64,000 bases of DNA from Doris montereyensis. Taxonomy: Eukaryota > Mollusca > Gastropoda > Nudibranchia > Dorididae. Positions 31,783 through 53,123 of this stretch are shown one piece after another. The stretch lies in assembly GCA_037039925.1 (NCBI GenBank), contig JAXRKP010000015.1, positions 15,001-79,000 of the forward strand. Reading direction: 5' to 3'. The notes under the pieces were generated by a model. It did not search any database. It worked only from the letters and a program-made list of their open reading frames with translations, and was not told the origin of the DNA. Made by a program: the position numbers and the translations under genes. How positions within the stretch are numbered: the stretch's first letter is position 1; each line of letters opens with the position of its first letter.

Positions 31783-34700
31783 CTACATCGTCAGTTCCTG
31801 TGGATAAATAGAAATGAAGAAAATTTACTGGGATGAAAAAATTGACACAAATATCAAGAGAAAAATGTCAATGGCATAACATTCATTTAAGTAAAATAAA
31901 TAAAATAAAATAACTTTTTTTTATTACATAATTTGTTATGATTCAACATGGAGAAAATCCCACAATACCATAACCAACCAGAGACTTGTTCTCAGTTGAG
32001 TCTCATGAAGCAATCACTATTTAAGCACAAATTAAACCAAAGAGCGAACAATTCTCATCCAAGATTACCGAACTGCTTCTATTATCATATTATTTTATGA
32101 TTGTGAGGCAAAAGGCTAATGGATCAGAAAATAATATTATCAGCCTTCAACATTTGTTTGCATAACATACATATCAACACCCAATGTGATTTGACCTCAT
32201 TCTTGAAAGCTTATTACAGAAAAGAGAAAAATGTAAGGGTAGAGCAAAGAGGTCTATGTACTACTTTGATGATTGAACATGACAAGAAAGCGATGATCAC
32301 TCCAGGACAATGCATTCATTGATCCTCTGAACTATGCTTTTAATTTGAATTTACCACATCTACATTATTTAGCAATCTCAGTGTGCATAGAGAGGAAATA
32401 GCAAGATGAAAGTATTGAAAGGAAAGATGCAGTACTTACAAGAATTATCTGTCAATCACATGATTCTTTGAAACGTTATCAATTTAATCAAAGGAAAACA
32501 AGAACTCCATCGGATGAAGATGGAAACTTTGCCTAGTTGGCACATTGTGCACAAAAGGAAACTACCTACCATAATTGCGTTGACGATATCATTATTATTA
32601 TTCTTGAGAGCCTTAACAGCCTTGCCTTCGACACACACTGGCTTGGGACATGACCAGTTCAATGTCTTTGTGTTCAACTCAGTCTCATCAACCTAGGGAA
32701 ATTTTTAAAAGTAAATTTACTGAAATAACAATTAATTGTTGACATGACAAATATGGGGGAAAGATTGTAAAAGCAGGGGCAACAATTCCTTGATTACATC
32801 TGTTTCATTTCAATGCATCTACCTAATGTTTACACTAACACTAACAATAGCTTGTCCAAACTGCCTTGTTTTCTGTTCACCACGGCGTGAATCGCAGATT
32901 TCGCTAATATTCCCCTGTGCCCCCTCTTCTATACAAAGTAGAAGCATCAATATGGCTTACATCATTGAAAGCTCTATTCAAGCCCTTTCAACCATATGTG
33001 TTGCAATAGGGATTGTGTAATACAATGTGCTCTCACACTAGTAAACGAGGGTGGTCAGATCGAAAAGCCAATGCGAGCCAATGAAAAAGCTAGACACCTG
33101 TCTCTCTTTCTTCACGTTACAGTTATGCGATAGCTCAATGAATGATAGTTAGCCTGATTGGTCGAATCAGATTTGGCTAAAAATAGGCTTTACAATGATA
33201 TCCATTACTACTGTCAATGTCAAAGTTAAGAGCTCATCCAAAGCAATTAAAGTTATTAAACGCTTTGTAGAGCCATTTACGTAAGAAACTCAGAGAAAAC
33301 AAGCCCACCAAAAGAAAGCTCATTCAATTTCGCATTAGAAACTACTAGTGTCATTAAATTTTGACTGTGCAAGTTACTGCGACAGAGCTTTTTTTAAACA
33401 CATCCTCAACCGAAACTCGTCACGGTCTTCTTACTAAATCTAGTAAGTGAGACAGACCAGTCGCTCTGCTCGGGCCGTATGTGCGTCGTCGATTCAGTGT
33501 GAAGAGACAAATTATGCTGCTTTTGTATTGTTTCATTTTCTTTATTGATAAAAAGCTGTTTTGTAGTTTTCTGAGAGTTGTGAAAAAAATTGGGCTTGTT
33601 CTATGTATTCATGACTTCAAGTTTCAGAAGTATGAGTTTTGTGCATAATCGTTTTTGCGAGATATAGAAGATTAAATTTTTGGTGTTCTGGTCCATTTGA
33701 AAATTGTAACAAATTTTCAAAAATTAAAAAATTTGCAACTTCGTTTTAATATTGTTCTACAGAAATGATTTTGATGTCAAATTACTCAGGTAGTAAAGTT
33801 CTTTCCAGTGATAGCAATTGCTTTTCCATTGCTTACATTTGAGATTTCAGTTTGGACGACCTACTAACAATAAAACTAAGATAGAAATTTGTATTTATCC
33901 ATGTGAAAGCATCAAGAGCTGGTTTTTAATGAGATTCGACACAATACAAAGTTTTATGGTTATTATTAATTTGAAAACAGAAAAAAAACTTATGATCTGT
34001 CACAATCTTGAATTAAAAGTCTGATCTTAGGACATGATTACCACTACCAATACCATCAGTGTTTTTCTCTTTCCTTACAATAGGCATTTTGAGCTTTGCG
34101 AGAGCCGATGAATCAGCAAGACCATCATGGTTCCTAAACACAGATGTCCGAAGGACGGATACAAAAACTGGAAATTGACTTAAAATTCCACTCAGTGGGT
34201 TGAAATTCCACTGTATTGAAGAGATATATATCTTAAATATATATATAGAAGATTTCAAGACTGCATGTCGAAACTCACAACTTCCAGTACATAGATTAGC
34301 AAATGTTATGTAACCCAATAGGTGAGATAAACGATACATACTTCCTCCTCGTCCTCTTCCGATTCTTCTTGAATGGGTTGGGACACTGTACTGGCCGCCT
34401 CGGTGGGAGCTCCACTGCTGTCAAAGGTTCGGAACCTATTGGCAGCTTCAACCTGAGCCTTCTGATTAAGATCTTCAATCTGACAACAACAAAATAATAT
34501 ACAATTTAATAATTTAAAGGCGTTTCATTGGCTGATTAGAAGTTTTTGTATACACAAATCTGTGGGGAATGATGACATACATGTAGTCTATTGATAAACT
34601 GTCCACAAAATGTAAAGCATATCATATCTCAAAAGCTAATGGTACAAAAGGGACAAAATCACGGAAATGAAATCTTCAAAACCTGATTTATTGACTGCAA

Positions 34701-53123: not shown

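What the first reader, a model, noticed from the sequence alone, without database searches (positions are those of the whole stretch)
31783..53123. Two complete tandem NACA genes whose coding differences are mostly synonymous despite frame-breaking indels
Every exon, both UTRs and the non-coding first exon are duplicated in the same order and orientation. In the 94-base second coding exon the two copies differ at several sites, yet the peptide is identical; other exons differ mostly at third positions. That is the mark of selection acting on both copies. At the same time the proximal copy has five small indels and the distal one has one. True pseudogenes would lose codons and third-position bias together, so sequencing error is the better explanation. 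If so, this lineage keeps two working NACA genes, which in most animals is a single-copy dosage-sensitive subunit.
Basis: partly seen in the sequence, partly recalled or inferred. Interest (0 to 1): 0.75.

Follow-up and report, generated by a model that had tools for sequence, protein, structure and literature searches.

The report
Tandem NACA gene pair in sea slug
A sea slug, probably a dorid nudibranch, carries two neighbouring copies of NACA, the gene for a protein that guards newly made proteins at the ribosome; both have been kept under selection and the breaks in their reading frames look mostly like sequencing errors, so this is an interesting but not revolutionary gene duplication.

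Summary
Two NACA genes, six coding exons each, lie head to tail on the minus strand of a contig from a probable dorid nudibranch: A (38766-31783) and B (53123-44675). Each also has a short non-coding first exon in a conserved promoter (40795-40771; 56077-56053). Over 203 codons they differ at 16/9/55 first/second/third positions; dN/dS is 0.08 (NG86), 0.11 (LWL85) or 0.18 (YN00), with no in-frame stop away from the frame breaks. Both were therefore coding for most of their history. No third copy was found. Frame breaks also occur in 6 of 7 other conserved genes counted, including BTF3, the partner subunit. Error is thus the best reading for B's indel and probably for A's five; but A is an outlier (P 0.002-0.008), so a recent death of A is not excluded. 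New: synonymous divergence is patchy (exon 5 saturated, exon 2 low), and one related protein shares derived residues with B in exon 5 but not with A+B in exons 2 and 4, suggesting an old duplication partly homogenised by gene conversion (about even odds). NAC alpha paralogs are known elsewhere (Drosophila). Moderate interest.

The parts
40771..40795 (-). copy A non-coding first exon (pyrimidine-rich start, followed by GTAAG donor); limits inferred
40752..40926 (-). copy A stretch alignable with the copy B promoter (includes exon 1)
   Evidence: 116 of 172 gapless columns identical, z = 10, 0 of 300 shuffles
38631..38795 (-). copy A exon 2: 5' UTR, ATG at 38766-38764, N-terminal acidic part; one-base indel
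36838..36931 (-). copy A exon 3, 94 bases, peptide identical to copy B
35771..35902 (-). copy A exon 4, NAC domain; one-base indel
34342..34479 (-). copy A exon 5, linker between NAC and UBA parts; open
32570..32692 (-). copy A exon 6, UBA part; three small indels that sum to zero, followed by a stretch identical to copy B
31783..31797 (-). copy A exon 7, ELTM and stop
56053..56077 (-). copy B non-coding first exon (pyrimidine-rich start, followed by GTAAG donor); limits inferred
56034..56229 (-). copy B stretch alignable with the copy A promoter (includes exon 1)
52990..53162 (-). copy B exon 2: 5' UTR, ATG at 53123-53121, N-terminal acidic part; one-base indel
51024..51117 (-). copy B exon 3
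50241..50371 (-). copy B exon 4, NAC domain, open
48222..48359 (-). copy B exon 5, open
45395..45517 (-). copy B exon 6, UBA part, open
44675..44689 (-). copy B exon 7, ELTM and stop
32564..32628 (-). 65-base stretch identical to 45389-45453 (end of exon 6 plus first intron bases), a candidate gene-conversion patch

Best explanation
Two tandem, intron-containing, separately promoted NACA genes arose by a segmental tandem duplication in the lineage of this sea slug. Both have been maintained as genes for the alpha subunit of the nascent polypeptide-associated complex, each presumably pairing with BTF3 (shown: gene structure, past selection, promoter conservation; inferred: transcription, translation and pairing). 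Most or all frame-breaking indels in the assembly are consensus errors (inferred from controls). The confidence below is for this core. A further part, at about even odds, is that gene conversion has homogenised exon 2 and, in part, exons 3, 4 and the end of exon 6, while exon 5 kept its old divergence.
For: dN/dS 0.082 (NG86, bootstrap 0.043-0.133), LWL85 0.053/0.485, YN00 0.065/0.371, 203 codons. With the NG86 distance, a copy dead for 15% of its life would show 12 or fewer residue changes and no stop in 0.5% of 600 simulations. Promoter plus first exon, 2-3 kb from the coding exons, conserved at z = 10. A, B and P0003 form a clade at 99/98 support among heterobranch NACA proteins. Frame breaks in 6 of 7 control genes, 14 events in 9851 bases (counted). 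BTF3, the only other NAC-domain match in the assembly, is broken inside a 116-base exon whose two halves both match BTF3 chains of the PDB. Three gap events over 4156 columns between two stretches of the mitochondrial contig. For conversion: exon heterogeneity of synonymous change, permutation P 0.0024, exon 5 against the rest P 0.0007; states absent from 11 outgroup rows are shared by A+B three times in exon 2 and twice in exon 4, and by B+P0003 three times in exon 5.
Against: A has 5 indels in 638 bases against a pooled background of 1.42 per kb: P 0.0024 (Poisson) or 0.0077 (negative binomial). The tables for CCT (44 matches), proteasome (19) and RPB2 (9) show, by eye, no abutting matches in different frames, and MCM (20) shows one, so the true background may be lower and A more of an outlier. 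Three of the seven control genes are HSP70 copies, which could include real pseudogenes. With the YN00 distance the bound on how long A could have been dead loosens by a factor of about 1.7. Five of 12 exon-flank windows of 120 bases also exceed all 200 shuffles, so conservation beside exons is not confined to the promoter. The conversion part rests on 8 informative residues, none in exons 3 and 6, and on one unnamed protein; the whole-protein tree does not resolve A, B and P0003 (A+B 63/28; AU p 0.45 for B+P0003). There is no expression evidence.
Confidence: 0.7

Rival explanations
1. A is a very young pseudogene: it was functional until recently and some or all of its five indels are real, while B's single indel is an error.
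For: A's indel density exceeds the measured background. A has replacements at two NAC-domain residues (N and I) that all 11 outgroup heterobranch rows keep. A's end branch is longer than B's, 0.082 against 0.034. Taking P0003 as outgroup, A has 12 unique residues and B 5.
Against: No in-frame stop outside frame breaks, splice sites present; dN/dS 0.08-0.18. Five real indels at a recalled neutral ratio of 0.10-0.15 indels per substitution would go with about 23-34 residue changes (interpolated; this ratio does not depend on the dS method). A has 12 unique residues against P0003, plus 2 sites where all three differ, and about 7 against the outgroup majority, B about 6 (my count). 12 against 5 is not significant (my chi-square 2.9, P about 0.09).
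Confidence: 0.22
2. The two copies are haplotigs or an assembly duplication of one gene.
For: The assembly has errors.
Against: Synonymous divergence 0.63 by NG86 and saturated in exon 5. A repeat search over 28000-58000 found no interior intron sequence shared by A and B at 40 bases or more apart from exons with their edges, simple repeats and a dispersed repeat. B has a transposon in an intron that A lacks by eye. Both are in tandem on one contig.
Confidence: 0.01
3. Duplication without gene conversion; the patchy divergence reflects uneven synonymous constraint, and the likeness of B to P0003 in exon 5 is convergence or chance.
For: Only 8 informative residues. The identical stretch in exon 6 ends close to the intron edge. 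P of the identical run is only 0.03 by permutation.
Against: Exon heterogeneity P 0.0024, in the same direction as the residue patterns. Exon 2 likeness runs on for about 30 bases into intron 2, which codon constraint does not explain.
Confidence: 0.4

Closest known systems
Canonical animal NACA (nascent polypeptide-associated complex subunit alpha; PF01849 NAC plus PF19026 in the precomputed domains of relatives)
   Same: Full length and order; copy A (X at frame breaks) aligns over nearly its whole length with NACA chains of the PDB; both copies are 75-85% identical to the nine named heterobranch NACA proteins listed
   Different: Two tandem copies; in the listings (best 120 of 7954, 90% clusters) each named gastropod appears once, though such a list can hide close paralogs; derived residues shared with P0003; frame breaks in the assembly
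Drosophila germline NAC alpha paralog CG4415 (PMC9249742, passages read)
   Same: A second alpha-subunit gene kept by an animal
   Different: The fly paralog has a roughly threefold longer disordered N-terminus and is germline-specific; here the copies are tandem, near equal in length and close in sequence, expression unknown
Mammalian NACA2 and NACAD (recalled, no call)
   Same: Additional NACA-like genes
   Different: As recalled, NACA2 is intronless; both slug copies keep introns and promoter

Membership tests
NACA (NAC alpha subunit) | NAC domain (PF01849) | tested here: met
   B 69.9 bits, A 36.3 bits over the part before its frame break; cut-off 21.3
NACA (NAC alpha subunit) | C-terminal UBA-like part ending ELTM | tested here: met
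   in A part of this exon is frame-shifted, its ends are in frame
NACA (NAC alpha subunit) | closest relatives are NACA, not BTF3 | tested here: met
   (solved chains matched: NACA, and one archaeal homolog); tree of NACA rows only, no BTF3 in it
NACA (NAC alpha subunit) | binds BTF3 and the ribosome exit | not testable with these tools
   needs protein
processed (retro) pseudogene | introns lost | tested here: not met
   six introns with GT/AG edges in both copies
duplicated pseudogene (old) | relaxed constraint, dN/dS near 1, stops | tested here: not met
duplicated pseudogene (very recent) | real frame-breaking mutations, no functional transcript | not testable with these tools
   no reads or RNA held; indel excess in A noted

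The most novel reading that the evidence does not exclude
This slug lineage has kept an old second NACA for so long that exon 5, the linker between NAC and UBA parts, is saturated at synonymous sites, while gene conversion keeps the ribosome-binding and dimer parts alike. The two genes then make two NAC alpha isoforms with different linkers and, in A, an altered NAC-domain strand, both competing for one BTF3.
Probability: 0.3. Interest if true: 0.5.

Novelty: new member of a known kind. Interest (0 to 1): 0.33.

Why it matters
NAC subunits are essential and act as an alpha-beta dimer, so a long-kept tandem duplicate of one subunit is a natural test of dosage balance and of isoform specialisation at the ribosome exit. 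The case also shows how an error-bearing assembly can make probably working genes look like pseudogenes, and how selection statistics help to tell the two apart.

Tried and rejected
A third NACA copy in the assembly: none found; all 11 matches (of 14 candidates scored) of Physella NACA are exons of A or B. Intron-hosted small RNA as the reason for the conserved start of intron 2: Rfam over 30000-57500 gave only one weak tRNA-like hit at 37144-37216, below cut-off. An A-like protein in other species: the search with A lists largely the same relatives as with B, and the best 14 rows all score higher with B. Actin as an error control: my reference was taken from a wrong frame and was not repeated, so actin is not counted, although its table shows by eye several abutting matches in different frames. 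HSP70-like genes on C3480 (two copies) were dropped from the background count because they are only 44-86% identical to the reference, so alignment gaps are not safe; they show 13 and 24 gap events and would have raised the background. Matches on C2829 at 29-39% identity were not counted either. Other HSP70 contigs without fetched loci (C3272, C2224, C527, C980, C2024) were not counted. One three-base insertion in the C220 HSP70 was left out of its count of six. The large open pieces at 7674-15810 were not used as a local error gauge because introns cannot be told from frame breaks without a homolog. Paper searches for NACA duplicates in molluscs (8 papers listed), for tandem gene conversion (none) and for NACA paralogs (6 of 7 listed) gave nothing on point; some searches were looked at as listings and are not used, and passages of PMC11997370 did not name the source assembly. 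A report in a paper not held is possible.

Full report
What is there. The window is part of a 513-Mb assembly in 3500 contigs. Its COX1 is closest to clusters named for Polyceridae (97%) and Hypselodoris whitei (96%), so the animal is most likely a dorid nudibranch; I did not identify the species. Two NACA genes lie head to tail on the minus strand. Gene A has coding exons at 38766-38631, 36931-36838, 35902-35771, 34479-34342, 32692-32570 and 31797-31783; gene B at 53123-52990, 51117-51024, 50371-50241, 48359-48222, 45517-45395 and 44689-44675. The intron edges read GT and AG in both copies; the donor after exon 2 is GTTAGG in B and GTAGGT in A.

The promoter and first exon. Upstream, a short non-coding exon is inferred in each copy: A 40795-40771 and B 56077-56053, both beginning with CTTTTCCGG and followed by GTAAG. 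The sequence around it aligns between the copies (199 columns, 116 identities in 172 gapless columns) with z = 10 and 0 of 300 dinucleotide shuffles reaching the score. The pyrimidine-rich start resembles the 5' terminal oligopyrimidine type of translation-related genes (recalled; a resemblance only). In a repeat search of the region at 40 bases or more, exons with their edges and repeats come up, and no interior intron sequence. Beside exons some likeness remains: 5 of 12 flank windows of 120 bases exceed all 200 shuffles (after exon 2, after exon 4, before exon 6, and on both sides of exon 7). The conserved promoter block, 2-3 kb from the coding exons, suggests that both copies keep a working promoter. 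The pair therefore reaches to about 56.2 kb, beyond the coordinates given.

Selection. I compared 203 codons, leaving out codons touched by indels. Differences by codon position are 16, 9 and 55; 19 residues differ. NG86 gives dS 0.633, dN 0.052 and dN/dS 0.082 (bootstrap 0.043-0.133); LWL85 gives 0.053/0.485, a ratio of 0.11; YN00 gives 0.065/0.371, a ratio of 0.18. Exon 3 has 8 differences and no residue change. In a simulation of neutral decay with the NG86 distance, a copy dead for 15% of its life shows 12 or fewer residue changes and no stop in 0.5% of 600 runs, and one dead for 10% in 17%. With the YN00 distance these fractions grow by about 1.7. So both copies were coding for at least about 75-85% of their history.

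The indels. A has five and B one; in A's exon 6 three indels sum to zero. To learn what the assembly does to genes that must work, I looked at other conserved genes. BTF3, the partner subunit, is the only other gene with a NAC-domain match, and its 116-base exon is frame-broken though both halves match BTF3 chains of the PDB. Two neighbouring HSP70 genes on one contig, on opposite strands, differ by 13 substitutions and two one-base indels in short base runs; a third HSP70 has 33 substitutions, six one-base indels and one three-base insertion against the first. Three intron-bearing HSP70-family genes have 1, 1 and 3 frame breaks. In all, 6 of 7 genes counted are broken, 14 events in 9851 bases, 1.42 per kb. 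Some HSP70 copies could be real pseudogenes; BTF3 and the intron-bearing genes are the safer controls. The mitochondrial contig holds COX1 twice, 14.4 kb apart, presumably one circle read through more than once; the two stretches differ by three gap events and one two-base mismatch in 4156 columns, and COX1 is split in one of them.

What this does and does not show. B's one indel is what the background predicts (P 0.57-0.59 for at least one). A's five are more than expected (P 0.0024 Poisson, 0.0077 negative binomial; both copies together P 0.011 by Poisson). Tables for CCT (44 matches), proteasome (19) and RPB2 (9) show by eye no abutting matches in different frames, and MCM (20 matches) shows one, on C2811. 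Such tables miss breaks near the ends of short exons, but they may mean that the background is lower than I measured. On the other hand, five real neutral indels should come with about 23-34 residue changes (interpolated, with a recalled ratio of 0.10-0.15 indels per substitution), and A shows 12 unique residues against P0003 and about 7 against the outgroup majority. Error for most or all of A's indels is the better reading, but a recent death is not excluded.

History of the pair. A, B and one protein from an unnamed source, P0003, form a strongly supported clade (99/98) inside heterobranchs, on a stem of 0.11 changes per column. The order within the clade is unresolved on the whole protein (A+B 63/28; B+P0003 not rejected, AU p 0.45). 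Exon by exon the picture differs. Synonymous divergence pS is 0.19 in exon 2, 0.36 in exon 3, 0.38 in exon 4 and 0.82 in exon 5. Among codons with the same residue, 18 of 36 differ in exon 5 against 30 of 145 elsewhere, P 0.0007, and heterogeneity over exons has permutation P 0.0024. The end of exon 6 is identical over 65 bases; with about 11 synonymous sites there, no difference has P 0.001 under the rate of the other exons, but the run of 18 identical codons has permutation P of only 0.03. Residue states absent from all 11 outgroup rows are shared by A and B three times in exon 2 and twice in exon 4, and by B and P0003 three times in exon 5; exons 3, 6 and 7 have no such site. The simplest account is a duplication older than the split from the source of P0003, with later gene conversion over exon 2 and in part exons 3, 4 and the end of exon 6. 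Likeness of A and B in about 30 bases of intron 2 fits a conversion patch. The case is thin in numbers and I give it about even odds.

Mechanism. Each gene most likely makes a NAC alpha subunit that pairs with BTF3 and binds at the ribosome exit; this is established for the family and inferred here. The copies differ mainly in the linker coded by exon 5 (10 of 19 residue differences) and, in A, at two residues of the NAC domain that all 11 outgroup rows keep as N and I. Whether A and B are expressed at different places or simply raise dosage cannot be told from sequence.

Comparison with what is known. NAC alpha paralogs exist in other animals: Drosophila has a germline alpha subunit, CG4415 (PMC9249742, passages read). 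One search for NACA duplication in molluscs found no paper on point. The pair is a new member of a known kind: a tandem paralog, not found here in other named gastropods, with the limits of the protein listings stated above. Its interest lies in the long retention, the possible partial homogenisation, and its value as a worked case of pseudogene-like artefacts.

Changes after checking.

Noticed in passing
46001-47700 (-): PiggyBac-type transposase in the intron between exons 5 and 6 of copy B: the piece 46470-47198 matches DDE_Tnp_1_7 at E 8e-41, neighbouring open pieces lie in other frames; no long terminal inverted repeats seen in 45550-48200.
   Followed up: partly
37649-37958 and 54874-55190: Two copies of a dispersed repeat with a tRNA-like part, probably a SINE; a similar copy is visible by eye in the BTF3 locus L002 around 800-1090.
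   Followed up: no
7674-15810 (-): Chain of long, partly serine-rich open stretches (up to 1154 aa) in changing frames, no Pfam match for the six pieces scanned; perhaps one large gene.
   Followed up: partly
58410-59183 (+) and 5507-7179 (+): Reverse-transcriptase-like open pieces; RVT_1 found by Pfam for the first, the second judged by eye only.
   Followed up: partly
784-1360: Tandem array of a 45-base unit, 12.6 copies.
   Followed up: no
36589, 38434, 40185, 40194: Four runs of 8-15 C (+ strand) within 31500-40900, against two C or G runs within 44601-56200; may mark poor consensus around gene A.
   Followed up: partly
41267-41431 and 60068-60226: Shared repeat of about 165 bases at 87%, with a reversed likeness visible by eye at about 40918-41090, between the two genes.
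   Followed up: no
G000 contig C2227: Mitochondrial contig that holds COX1 twice, 14.4 kb apart, nearly identical; useful as an error gauge.
   Followed up: yes
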